Below are positions 1,769-30,184 of a DNA stretch of 64,000 nt, in pieces. Position 1 is the first letter of the stretch; each line of letters starts with the position of its first letter. Below the pieces are notes generated by a model. It was not told the DNA's origin. It saw only the letters and a list, made by a program, of their open reading frames with translations, and did no database searches. The stretch comes from Deltaproteobacteria bacterium (GTDB taxonomy: Bacteria > Desulfobacterota > Desulfobacteria > Desulfobacterales > Desulfosarcinaceae): the NCBI GenBank assembly GCA_021824175.1, contig JAKALP010000006.1:124001-188000 (forward strand), written 5' to 3'. The position numbers and the translations under genes are program-made.

Positions 1769-1771
1769 GGT

Positions 1772-1812: not shown

Positions 1813-1822
1813 CTGCTTCACC

Positions 1823-2803: not shown

Positions 2804-2826
2804 AATCGTCTTCTTTTTTGCGGATT

Positions 2827-2899: not shown

Positions 2900-2942
2900 T
2901 CTTCTTCTTTAAAAAATACTCATCCCTGAATATATGCTGCCC

Positions 2943-9856: not shown

Positions 9857-10867
9857 TCAACAGATTCTGGGCAACTGCTCGCCGCTGAGCATATCCACGA
9901 TGCGCTGGCCGCCGATGCGGGTTTGCATGATCACCCGGCCGGGGTGGTCGGCGACCACTTGGCCGATGATGCAGGCATTTCGGCCGCAAGGGCTTTGTTG
10001 TATAATGGATAGAACCGCCTTAGCGTGCCTGGCGGGCACAAAGCAAAGCAGTTTGCCTTCGTTGGCCAGATACAGGGGATCAAAGCCCAGCAACTCGCAG
10101 ATGCCGGCCACGGCCGGGGTAACGGGCAATTTCTCTTCTTCGATGACCATGCCCACCTTGGATTGCAGGGCGATTTCGTTCAGGGCCGTGCCCACGCCGC
10201 CCCGGGTGGGGTCGCGCAGCACATGCACGGCCCTGGTGAGGGCCAAAATCGCCTGTACCATATGGTTGAGCGGAGCGGTGTCGCTGATGACTTCCGACTC
10301 AAAGCGCAGCCCCTCGCGCTGGGTAAGCACGGCAATGCCGTGGTCGGCCATGGTGCCGGAGAGAATAATTTTGTCGCCGGGCCGGGCCCCGTCGGCGCTG
10401 ATCTTGACCCGGGCTGGCACCACGCCGATGCCGGTAGTATTGATAAAAATCTTGTCGGCCGCGCCCCTGGGCACCACCTTGGTGTCGCCTGTGATCAACT
10501 GCACGCCGGCCTGGTCCAGGGCTTTGCGCGCGCTGGTCAGAATGCGCCTTAGATCATCGATGGGAAGGCCCTCTTCCAAAATCAATCCCATGCTCAAATA
10601 GCGCGGCACGGCGCCGCACATGGCCAGGTCATTGACCGTGCCGTTGACCGCCAGGTCGCCGATGTCGCCGCCGGGGAAGAAGATCGGGTCCACCACATAG
10701 CTGTCCGTGGAAAAGGCCAGGCGACCCTTGTTTACTTCAAACACCGCGCCGTCATGCAGCATTGCCAGCATAGGATTGTCAAACAGCGGCAGAAGTACTT
10801 CGGTAGTCAATTGGTGGGCCATCTTGCCGCCGGAGCCGTGATCGAGAAGTATTTTGGTGTTTCCCAT
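9857..10867 (-). CDS. hypE: hydrogenase maturation protein, thiocarbamate dehydratase
   Basis: Dehydrates the carbamoyl group delivered by HypF on its C-terminal cysteine to a thiocyanate, the source of the CN ligands of [NiFe]-hydrogenase. The 336-aa protein starts MGNTKILLDHGSGG and ends PRIC, the diagnostic C-terminal modified cysteine. AIR-synthase-type motifs (FSTDSYVVDPIFFPGGDIG, DPTRGGVGTALNEIA) are present. The frame stays open upstream, but the HypE homology starts at ATG 10865-10867, and a longer start would run into hypD. It lies 23 bp after hypD. No hypC, hypF or hydrogenase structural gene is here. Confidence 0.95.
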   Translation of the reverse strand: MGNTKILLDHGSGGKMAHQLTTEVLLPLFDNPMLAMLHDGAVFEVNKGRLAFSTDSYVVDPIFFPGGDIGDLAVNGTVNDLAMCGAVPRYLSMGLILEEGLPIDDLRRILTSARKALDQAGVQLITGDTKVVPRGAADKIFINTTGIGVVPARVKISADGARPGDKIILSGTMADHGIAVLTQREGLRFESEVISDTAPLNHMVQAILALTRAVHVLRDPTRGGVGTALNEIALQSKVGMVIEEEKLPVTPAVAGICELLGFDPLYLANEGKLLCFVPARHAKAVLSIIQQSPCGRNACIIGQVVADHPGRVIMQTRIGGQRIVDMLSGEQLPRIC

Positions 10868-10890
10868 AAAGTAAGTTCTTCTATTCCAGG

Positions 10891-11988
10891 CTAACTGTGG
10901 TAACGGTAATAGGCCGCGCAGGTTCCCTCGCTCGACACCATGCACGGTCCCACCGGGTCCATGGGGGTGCAGCGTTTGCGGAACAGGGGGCACTCCAGGG
11001 GAGTCTTGGCGCCGATGAGGATCTCGCCGCAGGCGCAGCCCTTGGGCGGTTTCATCTCCACCACGGCGATTTTAAAGCGCCGGGCCGCGTCAAAGCGCGC
11101 CAGCTCCGGACGGATGGCCAGGCCGCTGCCGGAGATGGTGCCGATACCGCGCCAGCGGGCGTCGCAAGGCTCGAAGACCTGGGCCATTACGGCCCGGGCT
11201 TTGGCATTACCCTGGTCCGTGACTGCCCGACCATAGCTGTTTTCCAGAGCCGGCCTATGGCTTGTGATTTGACGCGCCAAGGCCGCGATGCCTTGCAGGA
11301 TATCCAGAGGTTCAAACCCGGCCACGGCGCAAGGGGTGTGGTGCTTCTGGAAGAAATCGTCGTAAGCATTCATGCCGATGATCACCGAGACATGACCGGG
11401 CAGAAGAAATCCATCGATGCGGATGGCGGGATTGGCGACCAGGGCCGCCAGGGCCGTGGGCACGGTTTTATGAGCGCAGTTAACACAGAAGTTCTCCAGA
11501 CCCAACTGCTGGGCCATGAGGATGGCCGCCGCAATGGTGGGAGCCGTGGTTTCAAACCCCACGCCCAGAAATACGACCGTTTTGTCCGCATGGGCTTGGG
11601 CCAACTGCACCGCGTCCATGGCCGAGTAGACCACGCGCACATCGGCCCCTTCGGCTTTTTCTTTCTGCAAGGAAGTATAGGTGCCCGGTACGCGCAGCAG
11701 GTCGCCAAAGGTGGTGATGATGACGTCGTCGCGCTGGGCCAGGGCAATGAAGCCGTCGATCTCCTGCTGGTCCGTGACGCACACCGGGCAGCCCGGACCG
11801 GAGAGCAGTGCAATGGTGGGCGGCAGCAAAGCCCGGATGCCGTGGCGGAAGATGGCCATGGTGTGGGTGCCGCACACTTCCATCAGCCGCATGGGCTGGG
11901 TGGCGTGCCCCTTGATTTGCCGCACCAGGCTTTGGGCCAGGGCCGGATCGCGGAACGATTCACCGAAGAGTTTGCCGTCAATGCTCAT
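10891..11988 (-). CDS. hypD: hydrogenase maturation protein, Fe-cyanide scaffold
   Basis: Iron-sulfur scaffold that, with HypC, assembles the Fe(CN)2CO group of [NiFe]-hydrogenase. The conserved cysteine motifs are present: MEVCGTHTM near residue 40, SGPGCPVCVTD, GFETTAPTIA, and the C-terminal set GCACGEIL, LECPLFRKRCTP and GPCMVSSEGTCAA. The start is ATG 11986-11988 with GGAAGGG upstream; the frame extends 24 codons further, but that extension is not family-like. It forms a two-gene unit with hypE. HypC, its usual partner, must be encoded elsewhere. Confidence 0.95.
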   Translation of the reverse strand: MSIDGKLFGESFRDPALAQSLVRQIKGHATQPMRLMEVCGTHTMAIFRHGIRALLPPTIALLSGPGCPVCVTDQQEIDGFIALAQRDDVIITTFGDLLRVPGTYTSLQKEKAEGADVRVVYSAMDAVQLAQAHADKTVVFLGVGFETTAPTIAAAILMAQQLGLENFCVNCAHKTVPTALAALVANPAIRIDGFLLPGHVSVIIGMNAYDDFFQKHHTPCAVAGFEPLDILQGIAALARQITSHRPALENSYGRAVTDQGNAKARAVMAQVFEPCDARWRGIGTISGSGLAIRPELARFDAARRFKIAVVEMKPPKGCACGEILIGAKTPLECPLFRKRCTPMDPVGPCMVSSEGTCAAYYRYHS

Positions 11989-12066
11989 AGGCCCTTCCGT
12001 TAAGATTTGAGGCGTGGATCTCAAAGAAAATGGGCTACGGCATGAAACCGTAACCCACAAATGTTA

Positions 12067-12145
<79 letters not shown>

Positions 12146-12284
12146 ATTTTGGCCGCTGAATAACATGCTTGATGGTCTGAAGCAAGCCCGTTGCAAAACC
12201 CAGAAAGAGAACGGCCCTGGTGTTTCAGCCCAATAGATCTGCAGTTGGGTGGCCGCGGGCAAGCGATCGCTATCCAACGCCCCA

Positions 12285-13010
12285 TCAATGCCCTTCCGCC
12301 AGATAGCCTTCCAGGCCTTTCATAATGGCCTGGGCCAGGTTTTCTTGCTGCAGCGGGTTGTTAAGGCGCTCTTCCTCGGCGGGATTGCTCAAGGAGCCCA
12401 CTTCGATCACCACCGCGGGCATATCGGCGCCTTGCAGAACCAGCAGCGGCGCGGAAACCAGACGCACATCCGGCATTCCGGCCACGGCCTCAAAGGCTGT
12501 TTTCAGGTGCCGGGCCAGCCGTTGACTGTCGGCGCGGTGTGACAGTTGCAGATCTTGCCACGGGGTGAGGCCTTCACCCGACAGGGTCGATCCTGAAGGA
12601 CCCGCGGATTTGGCGGTGGGTTGATAATAGTAGATGACCACGCCGCCGGCCGCATGGACAAATCCAGCGCCCGTATGAATGCTGATCAGCATGTCGGCCT
12701 TTTGGTTATTGGCGATGGCGCTTCGTTCGCTCTGGCTGATCTCGAAATCATCACCGCGAGTCAATACCACGCGGTAAGAAAGCTCCAGCATCTGGGTCAG
12801 CCGTTGGGCCAACGTCAGGCAGATCTGATTTTCGGTGGTGCCCATGCTGCCCTTGGCACCCACATCCTTGCCGCCATGACCGGGATCAACGGCCACCGTG
12901 ACGCCATGGGCGGCCAGTGCGGCTGGACTTTGAGCCACGGCCCACCCCCATGAAAAGGATAGGGCCCATGCCATGGCCAAAGGCAGCAAAAACCAGCGGC
13001 GGATGGCCAT
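12285..13010 (-). CDS. N-acetylmuramoyl-L-alanine amidase (Amidase_3)
   Basis: Periplasmic zinc amidase that cleaves the bond between N-acetylmuramic acid and the stem peptide. The catalytic set is visible: VDPGHGGKD (zinc His), TTENQ (Glu), SIHTGAG (second zinc His) and IEVGSLSN (catalytic Glu). A signal peptide follows the chosen start (MAIRRWFLLPLAMAW..., cleaved near AVAQS). The upstream 35-codon extension of the frame is rejected because it would bury this signal. The predicted 241-aa enzyme is a minimal amidase with no AMIN or LysM domain. It could act in septum splitting or peptidoglycan turnover. No cwl/ami operon context helps. Confidence 0.9.
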   Translation of the reverse strand: MAIRRWFLLPLAMAWALSFSWGWAVAQSPAALAAHGVTVAVDPGHGGKDVGAKGSMGTTENQICLTLAQRLTQMLELSYRVVLTRGDDFEISQSERSAIANNQKADMLISIHTGAGFVHAAGGVVIYYYQPTAKSAGPSGSTLSGEGLTPWQDLQLSHRADSQRLARHLKTAFEAVAGMPDVRLVSAPLLVLQGADMPAVVIEVGSLSNPAEEERLNNPLQQENLAQAIMKGLEGYLAEGH

Positions 13011-13145
13011 TTTACGGCGCTTTGGCGGTCTGAATTTCACTTGACACCCATGGGGTTTGATATTAACTAAATCGATTTTAATACGGCAGTTTAGTTGAAA
13101 AGGGTTGAAAGTCAAGCACCTAAATGGAATCGGGTGTCAAAGTTC

Positions 13146-13232
13146 GCGAGAGTGGCGGAATTGGTAGACGCACTGGACTTAGGATCCAGCTCTGGCGACA
13201 GAGTGGGAGTTCAAGTCTCCCCTCTCGCACCA
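13146..13232 (+). tRNA. tRNA-Leu(TAG)
   Basis: 87-nt class II tRNA: acceptor GCGAGAG/CTCTCGC, D-arm with GGTAGACGC, anticodon stem CTGGA/TCCAG around CTTAGGA (anticodon TAG), long variable arm, T-arm GAGTTCAAGTCTC, encoded CCA. It lies 358 bp upstream of tig on the same strand. Confidence 0.97.
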
Positions 13233-13590
13233 TTTTGAACCTCCAACTCCATGCCCCAATGGTGGTGCAAGCGTTCCCATACGCCGAGCAGGTTACATAT
13301 CCAAAGGTGTCGGCCGCTGCTAAAACCGTTTTCAGGTATACCATTCCATTTTACGTTCGATATAGCGGCTTAACCGATCCGGTTAAAGGACTTGGCCGCG
13401 CTTGAACACAAGGTGGGATAGGGTGGCCGGCACGCTTCCTGAAAGCCTCCAGTCCACCTATCAAAATGGAAACACAGCCCCGGCGCAGCATTCGCAATCT
13501 GGTCGGGGTATAATGGCGAAAAAAAATGCGGGTGCCTTCAGGCGATACAGCGCCAGGCACCATATTCAATTTATGAAAGGTATGGAAGTT
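13233..13590. other. tRNA-Leu to tig spacer with a dyad and a TATAAT box
   Basis: 358 bp without a confident gene; the tig frame is open from 13402, but family homology begins only at 13591. It holds the perfect inverted repeat TTAACCG-ATC-CGGTTAA (13370-13386), a possible operator, and a TATAAT hexamer at 13509-13514 that could be the tig -10 box, though no good -35 lies 16-18 bp upstream. Confidence 0.4.
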
Positions 13591-14922
13591 ATGAAAGTGA
13601 CGGTCGAAGATCAGAGCAGTGTTAAAAAAGTATTGCATATCGAGGTGCCGGCGGACGTGGTGGGACGCGAACTGGATGAGGCCTACAACGAGATGAAAAA
13701 ATCGGTCAAGGTCAAAGGCTTCCGGCCGGGCAAGGCTCCCCGCTCCGTGTTGGAGCGGATGTATCGCAAAGAAGTGCACGCCGATGTGTCGTCCAAGCTG
13801 ATTCAAGAGGGTTTTCTTGCGGCTCTCAAGCTCAACGACCTCAATGTGGTGGCGCCACCCAAAGTCACCCCGCCGGAACTCAAAGAAAACAGCGCTTACT
13901 CCTTTGACGCTTTCGTTGAAGTGCGACCCGAGATCGCTGATGTGCAATTCAAGGGCATCGCCCTGAACAAGAGCAAATACACCATCAGCGAGGAGGAGAT
14001 CGATCTGCAGCTCAAGATGCTGCAGCGCAATCTGGCCCAGAACAAAAAAATCGAGGATGACCGGCCCGTTCAGAACGGCGACATCGCCATTATCGATTAC
14101 GAAGGGTTCAAGGACGGCCTGCCCCACGAGGCCACCCAAAAGACCGAGAATTTCAATGTAAAAGTGGGCGAGGGCCGGGTGGTCAAGGATCTGGATGAGG
14201 GCCTGGTGGGAATGAAGGCCGGGGAAGCCAAAGAGATTAATGTGACTTTCCCCGAGGACTATTTCAACAAGGATCTGGCCAACCAGCAGTTGGTGTTTAA
14301 AGTCAAGCTCCACGAAATCCGGGAAGAGATCCTGCCGCCCATTGACGATGAGTTTGCCAAAAACCTTTCGGATCAATTCACCACCCTGGACGCGCTGAAA
14401 GACAAAATAAAGGACAATCTGCAGAGCGGCTACAACAAACGCATGGAGCAGGAACTCAATGAGCAGGTGTTCACCCATCTGCTGAGCCAGGCCAGTTTTG
14501 AAGTGCCCGATTCCATGACCGAGGTCGAGCTGGAACATATCTTAAAGGACGCGGAGCGATCCTTTTCCTATAGCAACCGGACCTTGGAAGAGATGGGGTT
14601 GAGCCGCCAGTCGCTGGCTGAAAAATACCGCCCAGTGGCTGAAAAGCAAGTGCGGCGGCACCTGATGCTGTCCAAGCTGATCGACCAGGAGAAGCTGACC
14701 CTGACCAATGAAGAGGTGGATAAGGGAATGCAGGAAATGGCCGACACCTACCGCCAACCCCTGGACAACATCAAGGCCTTTTACGAAAACGACAAGGATA
14801 ACTTGGGTGCCTTTAAACACATGCTGCTTGAAAAGAAGGCATTGAAGCTTATCATTGACAGTGCGGTGGTGAGCGAGGTTGAGCCGGCGGCCAAGGCCGA
14901 GGAGACTCAAGCCACTGAATAG
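13591..14922 (+). CDS. tig: trigger factor (ribosome-associated chaperone)
   Basis: Ribosome-bound chaperone and peptidyl-prolyl isomerase for nascent chains. 443 aa from the ATG at 13591, which begins MKVTVEDQSS. Three family domains are seen: the ribosome-binding N-terminus with the GFRPGKAP signature, the FKBP-type PPIase domain (NGDIAIIDYEGF...GLVGMKAGE...FPEDY), and the long helical C-terminal domain. In-frame ATGs at 13573 and 13582 are alternatives; GGAAG lies just before 13591. It is first in the tig-clpP-clpX-lon block, the usual order in Proteobacteria. Confidence 0.93.
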   Translation: MKVTVEDQSSVKKVLHIEVPADVVGRELDEAYNEMKKSVKVKGFRPGKAPRSVLERMYRKEVHADVSSKLIQEGFLAALKLNDLNVVAPPKVTPPELKENSAYSFDAFVEVRPEIADVQFKGIALNKSKYTISEEEIDLQLKMLQRNLAQNKKIEDDRPVQNGDIAIIDYEGFKDGLPHEATQKTENFNVKVGEGRVVKDLDEGLVGMKAGEAKEINVTFPEDYFNKDLANQQLVFKVKLHEIREEILPPIDDEFAKNLSDQFTTLDALKDKIKDNLQSGYNKRMEQELNEQVFTHLLSQASFEVPDSMTEVELEHILKDAERSFSYSNRTLEEMGLSRQSLAEKYRPVAEKQVRRHLMLSKLIDQEKLTLTNEEVDKGMQEMADTYRQPLDNIKAFYENDKDNLGAFKHMLLEKKALKLIIDSAVVSEVEPAAKAEETQATE

Positions 14923-14940
14923 CCAGGCAATACAAGCTCT

Positions 14941-14970
14941 TGATCTATGGGTTGATCGCGGGGTATAATT
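14941..14970 (+). promoter_or_regulatory. candidate sigma-70 promoter of clpPX
   Basis: TTGATC (14941-14946), an 18-bp spacer and a perfect TATAAT (14965-14970), placed between the tig stop and clpP with an expected start near 14977. No sigma-32-like or CIRCE element was seen. A tig read-through transcript remains possible. Confidence 0.6.
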
Positions 14971-15043
14971 GCGTTAGGCTTCAAAACAATGGGCCGCTTT
15001 CGTACAGCGGCAACAAACACCGATCCAATGAAGGAGTCTGATC

Positions 15044-15658
15044 GTGCCAGTGATTCCAATGGTCATCGACCAAACCAGCCGTGGCGAGCGGGCGTATGAT
15101 ATTTATTCGCGCCTGCTCAAGGACCGTATCATCTTCCTAGGAACCGCCATTAACGATGAAGTCGCCAATCTGTTGATTGCGCAGCTGTTGTTTTTGGAAT
15201 CCGAAGACCCGGATAAAGATATCAACTTCTACATCAACTCCCCCGGCGGCGTGGTGACGGCCGGTCTGGCGGTCTATGACACCATGCAATACATCAAACC
15301 GGATATCGCCACGGTGTGTATCGGCCAGGCCGCCAGCATGGGCGCCCTGCTGCTGGCCGCCGGGGCCCGGAAAAAGAGATATTCGCTGCCCAATTCCCGC
15401 ATCATGATCCATCAACCCATGGGCGGGTTCCAAGGGCAAGCATCTGATATTGAGATTCAGGCCAAAGAGATTCTGCGCATGAAGGAGTCGTTGAACAAAA
15501 TCCTTAAAGAGCACACCGGCAAGGATCTGACCCAAATTGCCAAGGATACGGATCGCGATTACTTCATGTCCGGTCAGGAAGCCAGGGATTACGGCATCGT
15601 GGACCATGTGATCCGCAACCGCGATGACCTGGATCAAATCGATAAGCTGGAGAAATAA
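15044..15658 (+). CDS. clpP: ATP-dependent Clp protease proteolytic subunit
   Basis: Serine protease that forms the tetradecameric chamber used by ClpX or ClpA. 204 aa. The catalytic triad is intact: Ser98 in GQAASMGA, His123 in MIHQPMGG, and Asp172. The start is GTG (15044-15046) with AAGGAG eight bases upstream, giving [10 protein letters not shown], a normal ClpP N-terminus with a short propeptide. It is 5 bp ahead of clpX, so the two are translated from one message. Confidence 0.97.
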
Positions 15659-15663
15659 TTACC

Positions 15664-16908
15664 ATGGCTAAAAAAGACGATCCCAACGATAATCTCTTTT
15701 GTTCTTTTTGCGGCAAGAACCAGAAAGAGGTTAAAAAGCTCATCGCCGGCCCCGCGGTCTATATCTGCGATGAGTGCATTCAGCTCTGCAGCGAGATCAT
15801 CGAAGAGGAGACCGAAAAGGAAGCCGGCGACCTCTCCAACCTGATGATCCCCAAAGAGATCAAGCTCAAGCTGGATGAATATGTGATCGAACAGGAAACC
15901 GCCAAGAAGATCCTGGCCGTGGCGGTGTATAATCACTACAAGCGCCTGGAATCCACCCTGAGCACCAGCGATGTGGAGATTCAGAAAAGCAATATTTTGC
16001 TCATCGGCCCCACGGGCAGCGGCAAGACCTTGCTGGCCCAGACCCTGGCGCGTTTTCTCAATGTGCCCTTTACCATTGCCGACGCCACCAGTCTGACCGA
16101 AGCCGGTTACGTGGGCGAAGATGTGGAGAACATCATTTTATCTCTGCTGCAAAACGCCGATTATGACGTGGAGAAAGCCAAGCGGGGCATTGTCTACATT
16201 GACGAGATCGACAAGATCGCCAGCAAATCGGACAATCCCTCCATTACCCGCGATGTCTCGGGCGAAGGCGTGCAACAAGCCCTGCTGAAGATTATCGAGG
16301 GCACCATGGCCAGCGTGCCGCCCAAGGGCGGGCGCAAACATCCCCAGCAGGATTTCGTCAAGGTGGACACCACCAATATCCTGTTCATCTGCGGCGGGAC
16401 CTTCAATGGCTTGGACAAAATCATCAAGCGCCGCCTGGGCTCCAAGTCCATGGGATTCGGGGCTAAGATCGTAAAAGAACATGAGGCTACGCTGGGCGAT
16501 GTGCTAAAAGAAGTGCAGCCCGAAGATCTGATCAAATATGGGATGATCCCGGAGTTTCTGGGACGCTTGCCGGTCATCGCCACCCTGGATGAACTCAGTG
16601 CCGCATCCCTGGTGCGCATTCTGACCGAACCCAAGAACGCCCTGGTGAAACAGTATCAGAAGCTGTTCGAGGTAGAGGGTGTCAACCTGCGCCTGACCGA
16701 CAGTGCTTTATCGGCCATCGCGGATCAGTCCATTAAGCGCAAATCGGGCGCACGCGGCCTGCGGGCCATTATGGAAGAGTGCATGCTCGATATCATGTAC
16801 GAAATTCCTTCCATAGAGAACGTGAAGGAGTGCGTGATCGGCGAGGATGTTGTGTTGCATAAGGAAGATCCGATCCTGTTGTATGAGCAGACGAAAAAGC
16901 AAGCATAG
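15664..16908 (+). CDS. clpX: Clp protease ATP-binding unfoldase subunit
   Basis: AAA+ unfoldase that selects substrates and threads them into ClpP. 414 aa. The N-terminal zinc-binding domain has C13-x2-C16 and C35-x2-C38. Walker A is GPTGSGKT (115-122) and Walker B is VYIDEID. The pore-loop region GYVGED and the [13 protein letters not shown] sensor-2 segment are present, and the IGF-type ClpP-binding loop reads SMGFGAK. It directly follows clpP. A short GGGCGCCATGCGCCC hairpin overlaps its stop region but lacks a T-run. Confidence 0.97.
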
Positions 16909-17086
16909 GGCGCCATGCGCCCTGTGTTGGAACATTTCCCCCATCATCACGCATGGGATAGAAGAGGCCGATGCCAACCCCGCCGCACCGCCCCACTCCC
17001 GGTCAAAGGGAAGAACTCCTTTGGGAGTTCATGAGGAAGCCTAAAATCGCCATATATTTTGCGCGCACTGAGCATAGGAGCTGAAA

Positions 17087-19534
<2,448 letters not shown>

Positions 19535-19635: not shown

Positions 19636-21300
19636 CTATTGGCTGGCTTGCCATTTCCGGATGGCCTGCGCGATCCCAGCGGAGGCCTCTACAGCCAGAA
19701 CTTCTTTGCGCCACTGGTCGTCTCCGGCCATTTTGCTGATGGCCGCGAGGGTTTCCAGATGGATTTGGGGCGGCTCAACGGGCGAGAGCAGCAACGCCAT
19801 GATGCGCACCGAACGCCCGGACTGCCCGTCGCGGATGCCGGCCGCGGCCACGCCGATGGCCACCCGCGGCCGCCCCAGGCCCGCAACGCGCGCGTGGGGT
19901 AGGGCCACATCTTCGCCCACGAAGGTGGTGCCCTGTTTTTCACGCGCCAATAGCGCGTCCCAGGCCGTGGCCTGGATATGGGCGTCTATCTCAACGCAGG
20001 CGGCCAGCAGCCGCTGAATGGCCGTGTCTTTTTCCAGGGGTTCGGTCCAAACCAGGGTCGCGGCCATGGATAAGGCCGCGCCGATGTCATGGGAGAATTT
20101 CTTTGGCGGTTTCAAATCCTCCGGCATGGGCCCGGCCGGAGCAATCGATTCACTGATCCGGGCTTCGGGTATGGCCTTGGTGTCGAGCACCACCACCGTC
20201 AAGCCCCGGCCATCGGTCATAAGCCGCTCCACGATGCTGGTTTCCCCCAGGACGCGCTTCCAAAAGGGAACTTTTCTTCCGGGCGTGCCGATCACGATGT
20301 GCCCCACGCGGTACTCCCTGGCAAATTGCAGAATGGTCTTGACGATATCATCGCCCTTGTAGGTGAACACCGTGGCGCCCAATTGCTGCGCCAGGGTCAA
20401 GGTATTGGAAAGCATTCGCTGGGTGACGGCGTCGATGAGAGCGGGCCTTTCACGGGAGGTCTGCACGTAAACCGCATACCAGTTGCGGTTCAACCGCCCG
20501 GCCAGGCGCGATGCGTAGCGCAGCAATGCTTCGCTGTTGGGGCCTTTGGAACTCAGACAGACCATGACCTGATCCGGGCTGGATGGGATCTCTTCTTCCT
20601 GAGGACTTCTTCTGCGGGCATCGATCTGGGCGGCCAGTTCCCGCAAGGCCAGCTCACGTAGCTGCCCCAGGTTGGATGCTTTGAAGAAATGCGCCAGGGC
20701 GATTTCAATGCGCTCCTGGGTGTAGACCTTGCCTTCGGCCAGGCGGCGACGCAGATCCTCAATGGTAATGTCCACATTGACCAATTGATCGGCGTCCGCG
20801 ACCACGCGATCGGGAATCCGCTCGCGCACCTTGACGCCCGTGGCCCGCTCCACGGTTTCATAGAGACTTTCCAGGTGTTGGATATTGAGGGTCGAGATCA
20901 CATGAATGCCCGCCGCCAGCAACTCTTCCACATCCTGATAGCGCTTGGCGTTTTTACTTCCCGGCACATTGGTATGGGCCAGTTCGTCCACCAGCACCAC
21001 GGCCGGCCGGCGGGCCAGAATGGCTTCCAGATCCATCTCCCCGATGTCGATGCCGCGATAGATAATCGTGCGCCGGCCGAGGATTTCCAGCCCGCTGAGC
21101 AGGGCTTCGGTTTCAGGCCGGCCATGGGTTTCCACCAGCCCCACGGCCGCATCAATGCCGTCCTGCTTGAGGCGGTGGCCCTCCAGCAGCATTTGATAGG
21201 TTTTGCCCACCCCGGCCGCATATCCCAGGTAGATCTTCAACCGGCCGCGCTGAGAGCGGCGGATCAGACGCAGGAAATTGTCCGCGCGGTTATCGTCCAT
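19636..21300 (-). CDS. KdpD N-terminal sensor region fused to a PTS EIIA-like domain, no kinase
   Basis: Cytoplasmic protein related to the input half of the K+ sensor KdpD. Residues about 15-220 form the KdpD domain with Walker A GYAAGVGKT (26-34) and VVLVDELAHTN. Residues about 240-370 form the universal-stress-protein-like domain. About 405-552 match a PTS EIIA type-2 domain with the candidate phosphorylated His469 in DVALPHARV. The transmembrane helices, GAF, HisKA and ATPase parts of full KdpD are absent. ATG 21298-21300 has GAAGGA upstream and is preferred to the longer frame, which would overlap the preceding gene. It is last in the kdp operon and presumably informs the separate kinase encoded earlier in it. 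Confidence 0.85.
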   Translation of the reverse strand: MDDNRADNFLRLIRRSQRGRLKIYLGYAAGVGKTYQMLLEGHRLKQDGIDAAVGLVETHGRPETEALLSGLEILGRRTIIYRGIDIGEMDLEAILARRPAVVLVDELAHTNVPGSKNAKRYQDVEELLAAGIHVISTLNIQHLESLYETVERATGVKVRERIPDRVVADADQLVNVDITIEDLRRRLAEGKVYTQERIEIALAHFFKASNLGQLRELALRELAAQIDARRRSPQEEEIPSSPDQVMVCLSSKGPNSEALLRYASRLAGRLNRNWYAVYVQTSRERPALIDAVTQRMLSNTLTLAQQLGATVFTYKGDDIVKTILQFAREYRVGHIVIGTPGRKVPFWKRVLGETSIVERLMTDGRGLTVVVLDTKAIPEARISESIAPAGPMPEDLKPPKKFSHDIGAALSMAATLVWTEPLEKDTAIQRLLAACVEIDAHIQATAWDALLAREKQGTTFVGEDVALPHARVAGLGRPRVAIGVAAAGIRDGQSGRSVRIMALLLSPVEPPQIHLETLAAISKMAGDDQWRKEVLAVEASAGIAQAIRKWQASQ

Positions 21301-21310
21301 ACCGATTCCT

Positions 21311-22249
21311 TCAACGGCTGGCTTTAGTGGTGGCCCGCTCCTTGACCGCCTCCTGGAGGGCATCCAACTGTGATAAACACAGAATCATCAATCGCCGTTT
21401 CTGACCCAGGGATTCTTCCATGGAGCGCACATTGGTGTTTTGATGAGACAGTTCGAGGACCTCATTGTGAAGGGTCTGGAATTGCTCAAAGGCTTGCCGC
21501 GCTTCGGCGATCCACGGCTTGGCCGACCCGCCTCGCACAAGCACATCTAAAAGATTCAACGCCTGGCGCACAGTCGCATCCAATGGCTTCATCCTGGCCT
21601 CTAAGAGCTCCATCCCCGTATCCGTCGCCTCGAAAATATGAGGGGTCTCCAGGGCATGAAGATTGAGGCTGTTGGTCATGGCCTGGGCGCAGAGCTGTAC
21701 CACGCGGGCCTTGTTGGTGGACGGCTGTGCGGCCCAATCCATCAATTTATCGAGGGCTGCCTGCATCTGCTCCAGCCTGGCGGCCGCGGGTCCGGTGGAA
21801 AGGCGCAAGGCTTTGAGATTGGTGTTTTGTACTGCCAGTAAAAGGATCTGACGATCCATATCCCGCAACTTCTCCCAGGCCGTGGAGAATTGGTCCAATA
21901 ATTTTGCTTCGCGGCTATTCTTTTCGAGCAGGGCAGTCAAGGCGAGCCTGGCCTTTTCGACATTTTGCGACGCTTGTTCGGATTGCTCGGCAAAGGCGCG
22001 CGAGGACTCATCCGTATCAGCCATCACGGCGCTCTTCTCCGCTTCGGCCGAGGCAAGCAATTCGCTGCGCATGGTTTGCACCAGATGGGTCTGTTCACTC
22101 CATTTTTCATATTCGGTTTCCAACCGGCCGGCATGACGGCCTTCGACAAACAAAATCCCCAGCAGCAAAGCCAAGAGGATGGCTAAGATGACCCCAAAAT
22201 GAGAAGTGATCTTCTTCTTTGTTATGAGAGGGTATTTCATGGCGTCCAT
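21311..22249 (-). CDS. single-pass membrane protein with helical (four-helix-bundle-like) periplasmic domain
   Basis: 312 aa: a short cytoplasmic start, one transmembrane helix (about 18-37, VILAILLALLLGILFVEG), then an almost entirely helical, charged domain of about 270 residues. Two related segments, LAVQNTNLKALRLS and LSHQNTNVRSMEESLGQ, recall the helices of MCP-type four-helix-bundle sensors. It has no output domain. It sits between kdpC and the KdpD-EIIA gene, starting within the kdpC end (13-bp overlap; an alternative ATG at 22240 gives a 4-bp overlap). It may sense the periplasm or tether partners for the Kdp regulatory system. This is inference. Confidence 0.65.
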   Translation of the reverse strand: MDAMKYPLITKKKITSHFGVILAILLALLLGILFVEGRHAGRLETEYEKWSEQTHLVQTMRSELLASAEAEKSAVMADTDESSRAFAEQSEQASQNVEKARLALTALLEKNSREAKLLDQFSTAWEKLRDMDRQILLLAVQNTNLKALRLSTGPAAARLEQMQAALDKLMDWAAQPSTNKARVVQLCAQAMTNSLNLHALETPHIFEATDTGMELLEARMKPLDATVRQALNLLDVLVRGGSAKPWIAEARQAFEQFQTLHNEVLELSHQNTNVRSMEESLGQKRRLMILCLSQLDALQEAVKERATTKASR

Positions 22250-22833
22250 CCATCCAGGGCCATATTGACGATCAGTACATTGACCAGTGGCTTGGCGGTG
22301 AGTGCGCCGCCCGGCCTGAAGCTATGTTTGGCCAGCAGGGCCTCCACTTCGGCCAGGGGCATCCCCCGCGCCGCCGCAACCCGCGCGGCCTGATAGCGAG
22401 CCGCGGCCAAAGTAATATGCGGGTCCAGGCCGCTGCCCGAGGCTGTGACCAGATCCGCGGGCAGGGGCGCTCCAGCCGTGGCGCCATAGTGCTTCACCAA
22501 GACTACAGCTCGAGTCCGAAGTTCGGGATTGGTGGGCGACAGATTGCTGCCGCCCGCGGCCGCGGCATTGTAATCCACGGCCGAGGACCGGGGCCAGAAG
22601 TATTCGGGCCGGGTGAATGCCTGGGCGATGAGCGCGCTGCCCACGATTTGGCCCTGGCCGTTGCGCACCAGAGAGCCGCCGGCGGACTGGGGCGTCAAGA
22701 TTTGGCCCAGACCCCAGATCACCAGGGGATAAAGGCCGGCGCATACTGCCATGGTGGCCAATACGCTCCGCAAGGATGCGGTCGTTTGTTGGACCCATCC
22801 GTTTTGTCCATTCTTTGCGGTAAAAGAGTTCAT
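22237..22833 (-). CDS. kdpC: potassium-transporting ATPase subunit C
   Basis: Small single-pass subunit of the KdpFABC high-affinity K+ pump, thought to assist nucleotide or K+ handling. 198 aa. An N-terminal membrane helix (about 22-42) is followed by the typical GGSLVRNGQGQIVGSALIAQ, FWPRSSAVDYNAAAAGGSNL and SGLDPHITLAAARYQAARVA blocks, which are the family signatures. It lies 8 bp after kdpB. Its stop overlaps the start of the helical sensor gene, indicating translational coupling. Confidence 0.95.
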   Translation of the reverse strand: MNSFTAKNGQNGWVQQTTASLRSVLATMAVCAGLYPLVIWGLGQILTPQSAGGSLVRNGQGQIVGSALIAQAFTRPEYFWPRSSAVDYNAAAAGGSNLSPTNPELRTRAVVLVKHYGATAGAPLPADLVTASGSGLDPHITLAAARYQAARVAAARGMPLAEVEALLAKHSFRPGGALTAKPLVNVLIVNMALDGWTP

Positions 22834-24939: not shown

Positions 24940-26610
24940 TTACCGTACGGATAGCTGTTCGGCGATGGGCCCCAGCACTGCCGCCGGCAAAAACAGCAAG
25001 GCCCCGATGAGCACCACGCTGCCCAGAATCACCACGCCGAAAAGCAGCGTGTCGGTGCGCAGGGTGCCGACGGTTTCCGGCGCCGGCTTTTTGGCCGCCA
25101 GGGAGCCCGCGATGGCCAGGGGAAAAATGATGGGAACGAAGCGGGCCAACAGCATGACCATCCCCGTGGCCACATTCCACGGCACCGTATTGTTGCCCAG
25201 CCCCGCCAAATCCGAGCCGTTATTGGCGGCCGCGGAAGTAAATTCATACAGGATCTCGGAAAAGCCGTGGGGTCCGGTATTGTGCACCGTGGCGGCCCCC
25301 CAGGCCGTGGCAGCGAACAGGGCCGTGCCGCTCAGGATCAACAAGGGATGGGCCAGCAAGGCCAGCAGCGCGAACTTCATCTCCCGGGTCTCGACCTTGC
25401 GATTCAAATACTCCGGGGTGCGGCCCACCATCATGCCGCAGATGAACACCCCGACAATGATGAAAAGGAACATATTGATCAGGCCCACGCCGACCCCGCC
25501 GAAGGTGACATTGAGCCACATGCCGATCAGCGCGATAAGCCCGGTCAGCGGGTTGAAACTGTCGAGCATGCTGTTGGTCGACCCATTGCTCGTGGCAGTG
25601 GTGAGCGTGCCCCACACCGGGGCAGCCACCGGCCCGAAACGCAGCTCCTTGCCTTCAAGATTGCCGGCCGCCTGGACCGGCAGACCGGCCAGGGCCGCCG
25701 CCGGAGCGCTTTCAAAGTGGACCGCCAAGCCCAGCGACGCGATCAGCAGCAGGCCCATCACCGCGAAGATCACGGCCGCGTGCCGCAGCCGGCCCGCGAT
25801 GCGGCCGAACATCCAGACCGAAGCCATGGGAATCAACAGGATGCTCACACACTCCACCAGGTTGGTGAAGAAAGAGGGGTTTTCGAAGGGATGGGCCGAG
25901 TTGGGGCCGAAAAACCCGCCGCCATTGGTGCCCAGTTGTTTGATGGCGACAAAGGCCGCCACCGGCCCCCTGGCGATGGTTTGCACGGCGCCTTCAAGGG
26001 TTTTGACTACAGCCGCCCCCTGAAAGGTCATGGGAACGCCCCCCAGCACCAGCACCACGGCCTCCACGGCCGCCAGCGGCAGCAGCACCAGAAAGGCAGC
26101 CCGCATCAGATCGCGGTAGAAGTTGCCCAGAAGCGTACTGCCCGCCAGCCCCCGGGCCAGGGCGCTCAAAGCGGCGATGCCGGTGGCGGCCGAGACGAAT
26201 TGCAGCCACATCAAGCCCAGAAGCTGCGACAGATAACTCATGGAGACTTCGCCCGAATAGTGCTGCAGATTGGTGTTGGTCACAAAAGAGGCGACCGTGT
26301 TGAAGATCAGGCTGGGCGCCAGCGGCCCTTTGCCGTCTGGATTCAAGGGCAGCAATTGCTGTAACGCCAGGAGCATGAACCCAACGATGAACATCACCGC
26401 GTTGAAGAAAATCAGGGAAAGCGTATAGCCTTTCCAGGTCTGCATGGGCACACCGGCCGGGCCCGCGATTTTTTCAAAGAGCCGCTCGGCGCCTTGGCGC
26501 CAGGGGCCGGCCTTTTCACCGGGCGCCATGGCCCAGGTCATGGCCCGGCCCAGCGGCCATGCGAGCAAGGCAGCCAAACCGGGAATCAATGCCGTAAAAA
26601 TCAGCGACAT
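24940..26610 (-). CDS. kdpA: potassium-transporting ATPase subunit A
   Basis: K+-channel-like subunit of KdpFABC with ten predicted membrane helices and four selectivity-filter regions. 556 aa. Recognisable segments include [10 protein letters not shown] (first filter region), [20 protein letters not shown] (second), [15 protein letters not shown] (third) and [16 protein letters not shown] (fourth). It lies 11 bp after kdpF. Start ATG 26608-26610 follows GGAGAAATGT. Confidence 0.97.
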
Positions 26611-26621
26611 ACATTTCTCCT

Positions 26622-26702
26622 CTAAAATTTTTCAGGGTCGATAATGGCGAAAGTCAGGTACGCCACGCACAACACCAGGACGATGGCTGAAAGATAGAGC
26701 AT
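26622..26702 (-). CDS. kdpF: potassium-transporting ATPase subunit F (26 aa)
   Basis: Found by translating the gap between kdpA and the upstream kinase. It encodes 26 residues beginning MLYLSAIVLVLCVAYLTF and ending DPEKF, one membrane helix with the YLxxAxxxPEKF ending typical of KdpF. KdpF is a small subunit that stabilises the KdpABC complex. The RBS AAGGAGA lies 6 bases upstream of the ATG, and the stop TAG is at 26622-26624, 11 bp before kdpA. Confidence 0.92.
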   Translation of the reverse strand: MLYLSAIVLVLCVAYLTFAIIDPEKF

Positions 26703-26711: not shown

Positions 26712-26798
26712 TTATATTCTGTCGCAGGCGGCCGTCAGGCCCGCCATGGCGACGAAAACTACCAAGCCCAGCAGTATATAAAAAAACAGCGACAGCAT
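26712..26798 (-). CDS. 28-aa membrane peptide upstream of kdpF
   Basis: Small frame, 28 residues, beginning MLSLFFYILLGLVVF and ending TAACDRI: one membrane helix with a cysteine-containing end. It has a very good RBS (TAGGAG, seven bases before ATG 26796-26798) and lies 9 bp from both the kinase stop and kdpF. Similar short hydrophobic peptides with a CxRL-like end often precede kdpF in other Proteobacteria, in my recollection, but the function is unknown. It could be a second accessory subunit of the pump or a regulatory peptide. The reading frame, RBS and position make it likely real. Confidence 0.7.
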   Translation of the reverse strand: MLSLFFYILLGLVVFVAMAGLTAACDRI

Positions 26799-26807: not shown

Positions 26808-28664
26808 CTATAAAATCTTCTCCGGCGAACCTTGGGCGGCAGCGGCCCGCACGGGTAGCGTGAAGCAAAAGCGCGAACCCTTGCCCACCACACTTTCGGC
26901 GCGCACTTCCCCACCGTGGGCGCGCACAATTTCTTTGACGATCGCCAGACCCAGGCCGACGCCCGACTTATCGTCCTGGCCCGAACCGCGGTAGAACTGT
27001 TCGAACAAATGTACTAATTCCCGCTCGGGCACGCCCTGGCCGGTGTCTTCCACGAAAAACGCCACATGAGCCTGGGTTTGCTCGGCCCGGAGCGTCACCG
27101 CGCCGCCGGGGCCGGTGAAGCGCAGGGCATTGGAAAGTAAATTGGCGAAGACATGGCGGATCTTCTCGGGGTCCGCCATGACTTCCGGCAATTCATCGGA
27201 GACTTCGTTGGCCACCGTCACCCCTTTATCCTTGGCATCCGTGACAACTGCTTCCAGGGCCTCTCTCGCCAGGTCCCGCGGCGCCACCGGCTTCGGCGCG
27301 AGCCGTGCTTTGCCCGACACGATCCGCTGAATGTCGAGCAGATCGTTGAGGATGCCGACCAGCCGCTCGCTGTCTTCCCGGGCCGAAACCAGCAACTCGG
27401 CTTGTTTTTCGTTTATTGGCCCGATCCGTTCTTCCAACAGCAGATGAATGGACATGCGCAGTGAGGTCAGCGGTGTTTTGAGCTGATGGGATACGGTGGA
27501 GACCACCCCGCGTTTCATCTCCTGCCGTTCCTGCAGTTGGGTCACATCTTTGAGAATCAACGTTGTGCCGGTTGGCTCGCTGTGCTCAGGACCTAACAGA
27601 ATTGGCACCACCATCGGCTGAAAGAAGTATTCGTGGTGGTCGATAAACTTCTGGATATACCCTTCAGCGGGCTCGCGCTCCACGGCGCGCCCCTCGTCCA
27701 GGGCCTTGCGGATCATGGCTGGCAGCCATTCAGAACCGAGGTCGTTCGCCTTGAGGCCCGGCTTAATGCCGAAGAAGAGATTGGCTGTGGCCGTCGCCAC
27801 TTCCACCCTTCCCTCCAGGTCGAACACTGCAATGGCGGCTGGCAGTTCTTTGAAGAGTTCCTCGGTGGCGCGCCGCGTGCGCATCAAATTGACGCGGTCC
27901 TCCTTGCGGACCTGCCGCAGCGCGGCCGCCATCTCGTTGAACGCTTCCGAGAGCCGGCCGATCTCGTCCCGCGAGCGGGTTTCCACCACCAGATCCAGAT
28001 GGCCGCCGCGGATTTCATTGGCCGATTCAATCAGGCGGCGGACGGGATGCAGAATCCAGCGCTGCGCCAGATAACTGAACAGCAGCGCCAGCAAGGCGCA
28101 AACCCCGATGGCCGCCAGCATCTGGCTGTGGGCCGCTCGCGCCTGGCCGCGCGCCGCGCTGTCAGCCGCCTGCATGTTGGCCTGGTTCATCTCCAGGATC
28201 TGCTGGGACTCGCTCTTGATCTGCTGGAACAGCGGGTAGAGGCGGGCAAAGTATTCGGACTGGCGTGCTTCGAGGGGACGTTCGGCCTGGGTCGTCAGGG
28301 GCAGCGCCTGGAGGTACTGTTCAAAAAGCTGCTGGACCTTTTGGGCCCTGGCCCCTTCGCCGGGCAAGGTGATGTTGCCCATCTCCTTCTCCAGCGCGGC
28401 CTGGAACCGCGCGGTATTGGCTTGGATCAGACGGCGTCCCTCCATTGCGTTGCCCGCCAGGGTGAAGAGAATGCCGCTATCCAAGCGCTCCAGAGACTCT
28501 TTCATCTCCTGGCACGCCACCACGCTGCGGTAGTTCTCCCTGAGAATCAGATCAATGGCCTTGCCCAGGTGATCGATCTGGGCCATGGTCATCACTCCGA
28601 CCACGACATTCACCGCCAGCAGACCACCGAATCCCAACATCAGCTTTTGACGAATGCCCCACAT
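26808..28664 (-). CDS. membrane sensor histidine kinase of the kdp locus
   Basis: 618 aa. Transmembrane helix about 8-28, a helical periplasmic domain like MCP four-helix bundles (about 30-180), a second helix near 183-205, HAMP (about 206-260), PAS (about 280-375), HisKA with His393 in VSTVSHQLKTPLTSLRM, and HATPase ending GVGLGLAIVKEIVRAHGG. The layout resembles KinB/NtrY-type kinases. ATG 28662-28664 is preferred because GGAGGG lies 8 bases upstream and the in-frame start at 28706 would put coding sequence over a sigma-54 promoter (28690-28705). It is preceded by an NtrC-family regulator, its probable partner, and followed by the kdp pump genes. Confidence 0.9.
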   Translation of the reverse strand: MWGIRQKLMLGFGGLLAVNVVVGVMTMAQIDHLGKAIDLILRENYRSVVACQEMKESLERLDSGILFTLAGNAMEGRRLIQANTARFQAALEKEMGNITLPGEGARAQKVQQLFEQYLQALPLTTQAERPLEARQSEYFARLYPLFQQIKSESQQILEMNQANMQAADSAARGQARAAHSQMLAAIGVCALLALLFSYLAQRWILHPVRRLIESANEIRGGHLDLVVETRSRDEIGRLSEAFNEMAAALRQVRKEDRVNLMRTRRATEELFKELPAAIAVFDLEGRVEVATATANLFFGIKPGLKANDLGSEWLPAMIRKALDEGRAVEREPAEGYIQKFIDHHEYFFQPMVVPILLGPEHSEPTGTTLILKDVTQLQERQEMKRGVVSTVSHQLKTPLTSLRMSIHLLLEERIGPINEKQAELLVSAREDSERLVGILNDLLDIQRIVSGKARLAPKPVAPRDLAREALEAVVTDAKDKGVTVANEVSDELPEVMADPEKIRHVFANLLSNALRFTGPGGAVTLRAEQTQAHVAFFVEDTGQGVPERELVHLFEQFYRGSGQDDKSGVGLGLAIVKEIVRAHGGEVRAESVVGKGSRFCFTLPVRAAAAQGSPEKIL

Positions 28665-28689
28665 AATGTTGCCCTCCGCCCATAGGAAA

Positions 28690-28705
28690 AGCACGGGCCG
28701 TGCCA
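28690..28705 (-). promoter_or_regulatory. sigma-54 (-24/-12) promoter of the kinase-kdp operon
   Basis: On the minus strand TGGCACGGCCCGTGCT matches the sigma-54 consensus TGGCACG-N4-TTGCW at every defined position but one, with exactly ten bases between GG and GC. The predicted start of transcription is near 28680, giving a short leader with GGAGGG before ATG 28664. The neighbouring regulator has the sigma-54-contact GAFTGA loop. Confidence 0.82.
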
Positions 28706-28756
28706 ATGGCTCTCATTGAAATTTCATGGGGTTATAATCACCATGGAGGCGCCGGG

Positions 28757-28822: not shown

Positions 28823-30184
28823 TTAAATCCCGTACTGCTTGCGCTTGTGCCACAGGGTGGCCTGATCGATGCCGAGAATGTTGGCGGCTTCCTGAAGGGT
28901 CTTGGTGGCGGCGACGACCCGGCGGATGTGGTGTTCTTCGACGGTCTTCAACGAAACCAGATCGCCCAGCCGCAATGGCGGTGTTTGGGGCGTGATGACG
29001 GCCGGCAGATGGGCCAGCTCCACCGTGTCGCCCGCGCAGAGGATGGCGGCGCGCTCCACGGCGTTGCGCAGCTCGCGGAGATTGCCCGGCCAGGGATAGT
29101 GTTGTAAAGCCGCGGCCGCCGCCGCGCTGAAGCCCTTGATCACCTTGTGGTTCTGGGCCGCGAAAAAGGTCAGCATCTGGGCAGCCAGCGGCTCCACGTC
29201 CTGGGGACGCTCGACCAGGGGGGGCAAATCGATTTGAATCACGTTCAAGCGGTAGTAAAGATCCTCCCGGAAGCGCCCTTGCCGCAAGGCCTGATCCAGA
29301 TCGGTGTTGGTGGCGGCCAGGATGCGCAGGTCCGCCTTGCGGGTGCGCGGATCACCCACCCGTTCGTATTCATGATCCTGAATGAAGCGCAGCAGTTTGG
29401 GCTGAAGAGGCAAGGGCAGATCGCCGATCTCATCCAAAAACAGAGTGCCGCCCTCGCAGGCCGCCACCCGGCCGGGTTGGTCGCGCAGTGCGCCGGTAAA
29501 AGCGCCCTTCACATGGCCGAAGAGTTCGCTCTCCAGCAGCTCGGGGCTCAGGGTTGGGCATGAGACCGTGCCAAAGGGTTTGCCGGCCCGCTGGCTCCAG
29601 CCATGGATGGCGCGCGCCAGCACGGTTTTGCCCGTGCCGCTGGGGCCGCGCAACAGAACCACCGCTTCCGAGGCCGCCACTTGCCGGGCCAGTTCCATGG
29701 CCCGTTGCATGCCAGGGTGTTGAGAAGCAAAAGAGACTTCGGGATGCAAGCGCTCCAGCTCTTCCTTCAGGGTTGCCAGACGCTGCTCCATGCCGCGCAG
29801 CGCCGCCACCCGCTCGGTCACCAGCTGGACCTGATCCGGCGTGAACGGCTTGGGAATATAATCGGCGGCGCCCCGGCGCATGGCTTCCACGGCCGTATCA
29901 ATGGAAGCATAGGCCGTGATGACCACAATCTTGAGCCAGGGGGAGGCACCCAAAAGCACGGGGATCAAGTCAAGACCACTCTCCGTGCCCAAACGCAGAT
30001 CCACGAAGGCCAGGTCAAAGACCTGCCGGTCGGTCTCGGAGCGCGCATCCTTGGCGTTGCTCACCGCCATCACGTTGTGGCCAAGGGTTTCCAGGCAGAT
30101 GGCCAGGGTTTTGCGGATATTGGGCTCATCATCCACGATGAGGATATTGAGGCATTTGGGGGTGTCGCGGTGAATGGCGGTCAT
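28823..30184 (-). CDS. sigma-54-dependent response regulator (NtrC family) of the kdp locus
   Basis: 453 aa. Receiver domain (about 13-130) with D18-D19 acidic pocket and phosphoacceptor Asp62 (AFVDLRLG). AAA+ domain with Walker A GPSGTGKT, the sigma-54-contact loop GAFTGA (227-232) and TLFLDEIGDLPL. A Fis-type helix-turn-helix ends the protein (EAANILGIDQATLWHKRK). The next gene downstream is a histidine kinase preceded by a sigma-54 promoter, and the Kdp pump follows. No KdpE-type (OmpR family) regulator is present. It is therefore the best candidate for the kdp activator. It starts 29 bp after a two-helix membrane protein gene. Confidence 0.93.
   Translation of the reverse strand: MTAIHRDTPKCLNILIVDDEPNIRKTLAICLETLGHNVMAVSNAKDARSETDRQVFDLAFVDLRLGTESGLDLIPVLLGASPWLKIVVITAYASIDTAVEAMRRGAADYIPKPFTPDQVQLVTERVAALRGMEQRLATLKEELERLHPEVSFASQHPGMQRAMELARQVAASEAVVLLRGPSGTGKTVLARAIHGWSQRAGKPFGTVSCPTLSPELLESELFGHVKGAFTGALRDQPGRVAACEGGTLFLDEIGDLPLPLQPKLLRFIQDHEYERVGDPRTRKADLRILAATNTDLDQALRQGRFREDLYYRLNVIQIDLPPLVERPQDVEPLAAQMLTFFAAQNHKVIKGFSAAAAAALQHYPWPGNLRELRNAVERAAILCAGDTVELAHLPAVITPQTPPLRLGDLVSLKTVEEHHIRRVVAATKTLQEAANILGIDQATLWHKRKQYGI

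What the first reader, a model, noticed from the sequence alone, without database searches (positions are those of the whole stretch)
19636..21300. KdpD input module fused to a PTS EIIA-like domain, without a kinase
In E. coli, EIIA-Ntr (PtsN) is known to bind KdpD and affect its activity. Here a KdpD/USP region and an EIIA-like domain with an intact candidate His469 are one polypeptide, in the kdp operon, with the transmitter missing. The fusion supports a direct PTS-potassium link and suggests the KdpD part acts as a separate regulator of the membrane kinase encoded in the same operon.
Basis: partly seen in the sequence, partly recalled or inferred. Interest (0 to 1): 0.58.

Follow-up and report, generated by a model that had tools for sequence, protein, structure and literature searches.

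The report
PTS-linked KdpD regulator without histidine kinase
A bacterial potassium-pump operon carries a protein that fuses a potassium-regulator kinase module to a sugar/nitrogen-signalling switch domain; the same fusion recurs in many environmental bacteria and offers a direct, testable wire between energy metabolism and potassium uptake.

Summary
Window 21300→19636 (minus) encodes 554 aa: KdpD (PF02702), Usp, then a PtsN-like EIIA domain over Pfam's cut-off, with no HisKA/HATPase. His469 aligns with the PtsN phospho-histidine H73 and is His in 77 of 77 fused proteins, window included. HPr, EI, PtsP-like EI and a separate PtsN exist in the genome. "Without a kinase" needs correcting: the KdpD domain is elsewhere shown to be an atypical serine kinase that inhibits KdpFABC through KdpB Ser162 (PMC11018627); most of its catalytic residues are present here. 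The fusion sits in a conserved cassette: sigma-54 response regulator, HAMP histidine kinase, K+ transporter, KdpD-Usp-EIIA. Usually the transporter is KdpABC, but KimA-like or TrkAH genes fill the slot in some genomes lacking KdpA, and a short KdpD accompanies Kup in a 99%-complete genome. None of 29 Chlorobi genomes with the fusion has a recognised diadenylate cyclase, so there EIIA is the better candidate input. Best reading: a PTS-gated serine kinase/adaptor for K+ uptake; new variant of a known kind. Biochemical activity is inferred, not shown.

The parts
19636..21300 (-). KdpD-Usp-EIIA fusion gene, 554 aa
   Evidence: ATG at 21300; Pfam KdpD, Usp, PTS_EIIA_2
20623..21252 (-). KdpD domain (atypical serine kinase fold; Walker A G26-T34, Walker B D105/E106), residues about 17-226
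   Evidence: PF02702 307.5 bits; catalytic residues mapped to E. coli KdpD
20272..20568 (-). Usp domain, residues about 245-343
   Evidence: PF00582 24.3 bits, marginal; structure matches 7ji4 KdpD-Usp with c-di-AMP
19654..20034 (-). EIIA (PtsN-like) domain; candidate phospho-His469 at 19894-19896
   Evidence: PF00359 over cut-off; H in 77 of 77 fused rows; PtsN H73 equivalent
21311..22249 (-). 4HB_MCP-domain membrane protein between kdpC and the fusion
   Evidence: PF12729 54.3 bits; not found between kdpC and the KdpD gene in two congeners
22237..22833 (-). kdpC
   Evidence: PF02669
22842..24923 (-). kdpB; Ser173 in TGES aligns with E. coli Ser162, the residue phosphorylated by KdpD
24940..26610 (-). 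kdpA
   Evidence: PF03814 703 bits
26622..26702 (-). candidate kdpF (26 aa)
   Evidence: Read from the sequence; resembles E. coli KdpF by eye only
26808..28706 (-). membrane sensor histidine kinase (HAMP, HisKA, HATPase_c); more likely ATG start about 28664
   Evidence: start read
28690..28705 (-). sigma-54-type -24/-12 promoter candidate TGGCACGGCCCGTGCT
   Evidence: counterparts upstream of the HK in 30 of 57 loci against 1.54 expected
28823..30184 (-). sigma-54-dependent response regulator (NtrC type)
   Evidence: Response_reg, Sigma54_activat, HTH_8

Best explanation
The protein is a soluble regulator of potassium uptake that combines an atypical serine kinase (KdpD domain), a Usp domain and a PtsN-like phospho-acceptor domain. 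Most likely the KdpD domain inactivates KdpFABC by phosphorylating KdpB Ser173 when potassium is plentiful, and the phosphorylation state of His469, set by EI-HPr from phosphoenolpyruvate, adjusts how readily it does so; c-di-AMP on the Usp domain is a second input where the cell makes it. Transcription is handled separately by the histidine kinase and sigma-54 response regulator of the same cluster, and the fusion protein probably also touches that kinase, since it stays with it when KdpABC is replaced. Shown here: the domains, the conserved residues, the cassette, the PTS genes, the transporter swaps, and no recognised diadenylate cyclase in the Chlorobi tested. Inferred: serine kinase activity of this protein, its target, phosphorylation of His469, and the direction of the effect.
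For: E. coli KdpD-N and D. geothermalis short KdpD/Usp phosphorylate KdpB, the latter stimulated by c-di-AMP (PMC11018627). Residues reported there as needed map here: G36/K37/T38 to G32/K33/T34, D109/E110 to D105/E106, R190 to R186, KdpB E161/S162 to E172/S173; G32, K33, T34 and D105 invariant in 81 of 81 rows, E106 in 80 of 81. EIIA active site R57/H73/H120 to R453/H469/H514; H469 in 77 of 77 fused rows. PTS genes in the same genome: HPr, EI, PtsP-like EI with GAF, PtsN between rpoN and rapZ; HPr in 29 of 29 and EI in 28 of 29 genomes tested, 26 of them carrying the fusion. 0 of 29 Chlorobi genomes with the fusion have a DAC domain. Operon position next to kdpABC.
Against: In 5 of 11 fusion genomes tested no KdpA is found, yet the fusion persists next to KimA-like or TrkAH genes, so KdpB cannot be the only target. 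The adenine-stacking Trp39 is Tyr35 here (Trp in 15 of 81 rows). TGES is, from recall, a general P-type ATPase motif, so a conserved Ser173 is weak evidence. Two of 10 congeners examined keep the KdpD-Usp part without EIIA, so EIIA is not essential to the core function. The model gives no confident domain arrangement (pTM 0.34).
Confidence: 0.5

Rival explanations
1. Trans-acting adaptor of the histidine kinase: the fusion protein supplies in trans the input module that E. coli KdpD carries in cis, binds the cassette's HAMP histidine kinase, and passes potassium and PTS status to the sigma-54 response regulator. The ATP site is a sensor rather than a kinase.
For: HK present in 52 of 54 fused loci with at least 5.5 kb upstream, KdpB in 49 of 54; the HK and RR remain where KimA-like, TrkAH or Kup replace KdpABC. 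Tree distances of the KdpD part follow HK (r 0.80) more than KdpB (r 0.68). Trk-linked L017 has E106D, the residue equivalent to the serine-kinase Glu110, and the KimA clade has A108Q beside it.
Against: The bootstrap interval of the HK-minus-KdpB difference includes zero (-0.03 to 0.29), and for the EIIA part the difference is smaller still. Shared operon alone could explain the co-occurrence. The HK has its own sensor region, HAMP and transmitter. No interface tested. The ATP-site motif is intact in most copies without Kdp.
Confidence: 0.3
2. The EIIA domain is a passive binding or stabilising domain and c-di-AMP on the Usp domain is the only input, as in D. geothermalis.
For: Congeners with the short form lack EIIA; DAC is present in the window genome and in 25 of 29 genomes of the first set; the Usp part matches 7ji4.
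Against: A His invariant in 77 of 77 rows is unexpected for a passive domain. 0 of 29 Chlorobi genomes with the fusion have DAC. One of five positions of the Firmicutes c-di-AMP consensus, Ser246, is Lys here and mostly Arg or Lys in the family.
Confidence: 0.12
3. The EIIA domain is an ordinary sugar-transport EIIA handing phosphate to an EIIB.
For: It belongs to the same Pfam family, PTS_EIIA_2.
Against: Closest solved relatives are PtsN (E 2.8e-12) and not mannitol EIIA (E 0.019); the seven cassette proteins of the window scanned are Kdp and two-component proteins and a 4HB protein, with no EIIB or EIIC.
Confidence: 0.02

Closest known systems
Short KdpD/Usp atypical serine kinase (D. geothermalis KdpD; D. 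radiodurans KdpD-N; NCBIfam NF038185 'KdpD-like non-kinase potassium sensor')
   Same: KdpD plus Usp domains, no transmitter, in a kdp cluster (in D. radiodurans with a separate sensor kinase and response regulator, PMC5716572); ATP-site and Walker B residues shared
   Different: Has a C-terminal PtsN-like domain; scores 360 bits against the NF038185 cut-off of 550; partner response regulator is sigma-54 dependent; cassette also occurs with KimA-like and TrkAH transporters
E. coli KdpD sensor histidine kinase
   Different: No TM/GAF/HisKA/HATPase in the same chain
PtsN (EIIA-Ntr)
   Same: Fold and the three active-site residues R57/H73/H120; known to regulate KdpD, TrkA and YcgO in E. coli (PMC13104625, passages)
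   Different: Covalently fused to KdpD-Usp; the KdpD regions bound by PtsN in E. coli and S. fredii are missing; a separate PtsN also exists in this genome

Membership tests
Sensor histidine kinase KdpD (full length) | HisKA and HATPase_c transmitter in the chain | tested here: not met
   Only KdpD, Usp, PTS_EIIA_2 over cut-off
KdpD atypical serine kinase | Walker A (G-X5-GKT) and Walker B Asp/Glu | tested here: met
   G26-T34; D105, E106
KdpD atypical serine kinase | Adenine-coordinating Trp39/Arg190 pair | tested here: inconclusive
   Tyr35 and Arg186
KdpD atypical serine kinase | Phosphorylates KdpB Ser162 equivalent | not testable with these tools
   Ser173 present; activity needs biochemistry
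NCBIfam NF038185 KdpD_non_kinase | Score over the curated cut-off (550 bits) | tested here: not met
   360.1 bits
PTS_EIIA_2 (Pfam) | Score over the gathering cut-off (27 bits) | tested here: met
   53.1 bits; 60 of 60 members of A1 match at E up to 0.001
PtsN (NCBIfam TIGR01419) | Score over the curated cut-off (138.7 bits) | tested here: not met
   40.5 bits
PtsN (EIIA-Ntr) | Active-site Arg57, His73, His120 | tested here: met
   R453, H469, H514
PtsN (EIIA-Ntr) | Phosphorylated by EI-Ntr and NPr | not testable with these tools
   Relay genes present
c-di-AMP-binding KdpD Usp | (A/G/C)-X-S-X-S-X2-N and Tyr271 consensus | tested here: inconclusive
   C248, S250, N255 and Y278 match, Ser246 is Lys252; placed by eye

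The most novel reading that the evidence does not exclude
A transporter-independent potassium-control cassette: a soluble KdpD-Usp-EIIA protein reads PTS (carbon/nitrogen/energy) status, in place of c-di-AMP in Chlorobi, and passes it both to the transporter and to a sigma-54 two-component system that drives whichever potassium uptake system occupies the slot (Kdp, KimA-like, Trk; Kup for a short-KdpD form).
Probability: 0.33. Interest if true: 0.8.

Novelty: new variant of a known kind. Interest (0 to 1): 0.6.

Why it matters
Why the nitrogen PTS acts on potassium transport is an open and disputed question (the review PMC13104625 reports discrepant models; passages). Here the PTS domain and the potassium regulator are one polypeptide, so the effect of His phosphorylation on potassium control can be tested without sorting out a pleiotropic ptsN mutant. 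The same genome also fuses EIIA to a cation/proton antiporter, another kind of ion transporter on which PtsN acts in E. coli. The Chlorobi cases, with the fusion but no recognised diadenylate cyclase, predict that PTS state replaces c-di-AMP as the input. The loci with KimA-like, Trk or Kup in place of Kdp suggest that KdpD modules do more than police KdpFABC.

Tried and rejected
Considered and rejected: frameshift or chance fusion (76 of 80 related loci carry it); sugar-type EIIA; c-di-AMP as the universal input (0 of 29 Chlorobi genomes have DAC); the KdpB Ser kinase as the whole story (5 of 11 genomes tested without KdpA).

Tests that gave little or went against my reading: a sigma-54 pattern scan of the whole window is no richer than chance (3 matches, 7.35 expected), and only the position upstream of HK across loci is informative; in Chlorobi the pattern is seen in just 6 of 28 loci, against 24 of 29 elsewhere (counts from the list). 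Upstream of kdpA (4 of 54 at 9 or more) it is rare. The mirror-tree comparison favours HK over KdpB but the interval includes zero. The AlphaFold model has pTM 0.34, so relative placement of EIIA and the ATP site cannot be read. The genome's antiporter-EIIA protein is not a clear homologue of E. coli CvrA/YcgO (best E 0.031), so that parallel is one of kind, not of orthology. In the phylum survey three of 57 re-searched genomes lack KdpA; two of them are incomplete and their contigs end inside kdpB or kdpC, so only G242 was kept as evidence. Invariant-site changes in copies without Kdp beside them (1 to 5, against 0 to 3 in leave-one-out controls) may partly reflect a long branch of the KimA clade (0.91).

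Dropped or set aside: 4 of 80 loci without EIIA (L058, L059, L065, L088) and 17 further rows, to thin the set, were left out of A1 (60 of 81 rows used); the mirror-tree test used 41 of 48 eligible loci after thinning; 5 of 67 KdpB rows were contig fragments with gaps at TGES.

Full report
Observation. The 554-aa product of window 21300→19636 (minus strand) contains, in order, a KdpD domain, a Usp domain and a PTS_EIIA_2 domain, with no transmitter. Its ORF can be extended upstream to 21363, but that overlaps the preceding gene; ATG 21300 is the likelier start. The EIIA assignment rests on Pfam (53 bits, cut-off 27), on phmmer to PtsN crystal structures, and on a predicted structure whose C-terminal part is confident and matches PtsN. 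Active-site residues R57, H73 and H120 of E. coli PtsN align with R453, H469 and H514. Of the 81 aligned rows, window included, 77 have the EIIA domain and all 77 have His at 469.

Spread. A scan of GTDB genomes with this protein returned the best 80 of 127 confirmed loci; 76 of the 80 carry the fusion. Titles name Desulfobacterota/Deltaproteobacteria, Chlorobi, Hydrogenedentota, Aminicenantes, Planctomycetota (Phycisphaerae), Riflebacteria, Verrucomicrobia and Dadabacteria; most are metagenome bins and single labels may be wrong. In the window's own phylum 21 of 395 sampled genomes, the window's included, have an unbroken fusion (my count of the match table); the other strong matches are short KdpD/Usp forms, long KdpDs or broken/edge copies. 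In the window's genus 10 relatives were examined: two have a KdpD-Usp gene without EIIA after kdpC, none of the other eight has a listed match over the KdpD part. In a tree of the KdpD-Usp part, three of the four short forms of the scan (L058, L059, L065) fall inside a starred clade (99/94) with the window and other fusions, so EIIA has probably been lost (or gained) more than once (the tree does not exclude a single event).

Cassette. The cluster order is response regulator, histidine kinase, (KdpF), KdpA, KdpB, KdpC, fusion; in the window a 4HB-domain gene is inserted before the fusion. Among 54 fused loci with at least 5.5 kb upstream, the HK is present in 52, the RR in 44, KdpB in 49 (some absences are contig ends, and the HK counted for L038 belongs to a neighbouring cassette). 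The HK has a HAMP, HisKA and HATPase_c and no KdpD-type part; the RR is NtrC-like. Upstream of the HK a -24/-12 promoter match is found in 30 of 57 loci against 1.54 expected from dinucleotide shuffles; this set includes a few loci with short KdpD and 28 Chlorobi loci, of which 6 match. The window's site is 28690-28705.

Transporter swaps. In Chlorobi loci L034, L039, L045, L086 and L087 the slot between RR and HK holds a 665-688-aa ORF; the one from L086 matches B. subtilis KimA (6s3k, E 1.9e-64), and L034, L039 and L087 are 86-94% identical to it over the matched stretch. In L017 the slot holds TrkA and TrkH. Genome-wide search for KdpA in 11 fusion genomes finds none in 5 (L017, L034, L039, L045, L087); completeness of these bins was not given. 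In G242, a one-contig genome at 99% completeness with no KdpA, the order is RR, Kup, a 119-aa KdpC remnant, short KdpD/Usp (no EIIA), HK: a fossil showing that KdpD and HK stayed when KdpA was lost. KdpD copies in cassettes without KdpABC differ at 1 to 5 of 80 otherwise invariant positions, against 0 to 3 for the others in a leave-one-out control; L017 alone has Asp for the Walker B Glu106, and the KimA clade L081/L086/L087/L090 has Gln at 108. Three of these genomes (L081, L086, L090) also have KdpA and another fusion copy.

Inputs. Silberberg et al. 2024 (PMC11018627; I read the first part, section 8 and passages) show that E. coli KdpD-N is an atypical serine kinase for KdpB Ser162, and that the short D. 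geothermalis KdpD/Usp is stimulated by c-di-AMP. Most residues they found necessary are present. Their main text has no occurrence of EIIA or PtsN or PTS. The window genome has a DAC domain protein. In a first set of 29 genomes (26 with the fusion), 25 have DAC; the four without are all Chlorobi. A second search of 29 Chlorobi genomes with the fusion (four shared with the first set) found DAC in 0. HPr was found in 29 of 29 and EI in 28 of 29 of the first set. So the PTS input is available almost everywhere the fusion was tested, c-di-AMP is not.

PTS and potassium. Passages of PMC13104625 and PMC9239096 report that PtsN acts on TrkA, YcgO and KdpD in E. coli, with contact at HisKA there and at GAF in S. 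fredii. Neither region exists in this protein, so the fused EIIA must act differently: on the serine kinase module, on the separate HK, or on the transporter. The window genome also encodes an Na/H-exchanger-EIIA fusion with the phospho-His intact, an HTH-EIIA protein, and a stand-alone PtsN between rpoN and rapZ genes.

Literature. No paper in the held library contains both 'KdpD' and 'EIIA domain', and none holds all of 'EIIA domain', antiporter, PtsN and 'fused'. The three papers with KdpD, EIIA, fusion and 'kdp operon', and the three with KdpD, KimA and PtsN, were seen as listings only. The architecture is probably visible in domain databases (recall, not checked); I did not find it described as a regulatory system in these searches. 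Split KdpD with a separate sensor kinase is known from D. radiodurans (PMC5716572, passages). The c-di-AMP consensus of the Usp domain is from passages of PMC8214093. The Geobacter kdp cluster in PMC10599522 and PMC2700814 (passages) is described simply as kdp structural genes with kdpD/kdpE.

Verdict. A genuine, conserved, phosphorylation-competent-looking fusion in a conserved potassium cassette. Mechanism is inferred from a well-characterised relative; the PTS gating is a prediction.

Noticed in passing
window 21311-22249 (-): A 312-aa 4HB_MCP-domain protein sits between kdpC and the fusion; not found between kdpC and the KdpD gene in two congeners, but similar genes lie directly downstream of the fusion in L056 and L057.
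   Followed up: partly
window 26622-26702 and 26712-26798 (-): Two mini-ORFs between HK and kdpA; the first looks like KdpF, the second is an unassigned 28-aa hydrophobic peptide.
   Followed up: no
L002 (own genome) 1486-3351 (-): Na/H exchanger with a C-terminal EIIA domain and intact His; not a clear CvrA/YcgO homologue.
   Followed up: partly
L003 1477-2178 (-): HTH_17-EIIA fusion in the same genome.
   Followed up: no
L105 4790-10242: RR, Kup, KdpC remnant, short KdpD, HK in a one-contig genome without KdpA: a relic of a lost Kdp pump.
   Followed up: yes
L036/L086, L061/L081, L029/L090: Some Chlorobi have two KdpD-Usp-EIIA copies, one with KdpABC and one with a KimA-like transporter or beside the HK alone in the stretch held; the second copies form a long-branch clade.
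   Followed up: partly
L038 1650-15535: Chlorobium ferrooxidans: RR, KdpABC, fusion, RR, KimA-like, HK, with only one matching HK for two cassettes in the stretch seen.
   Followed up: no
L016, L018, L099: KdpABC of a more distant class, divergently transcribed from the HK-fusion pair.
   Followed up: no
window 9857-19534: Neighbouring genes look like hypE, hypD, tig, clpP, clpX, lon by recall of the translations; not searched.
   Followed up: no
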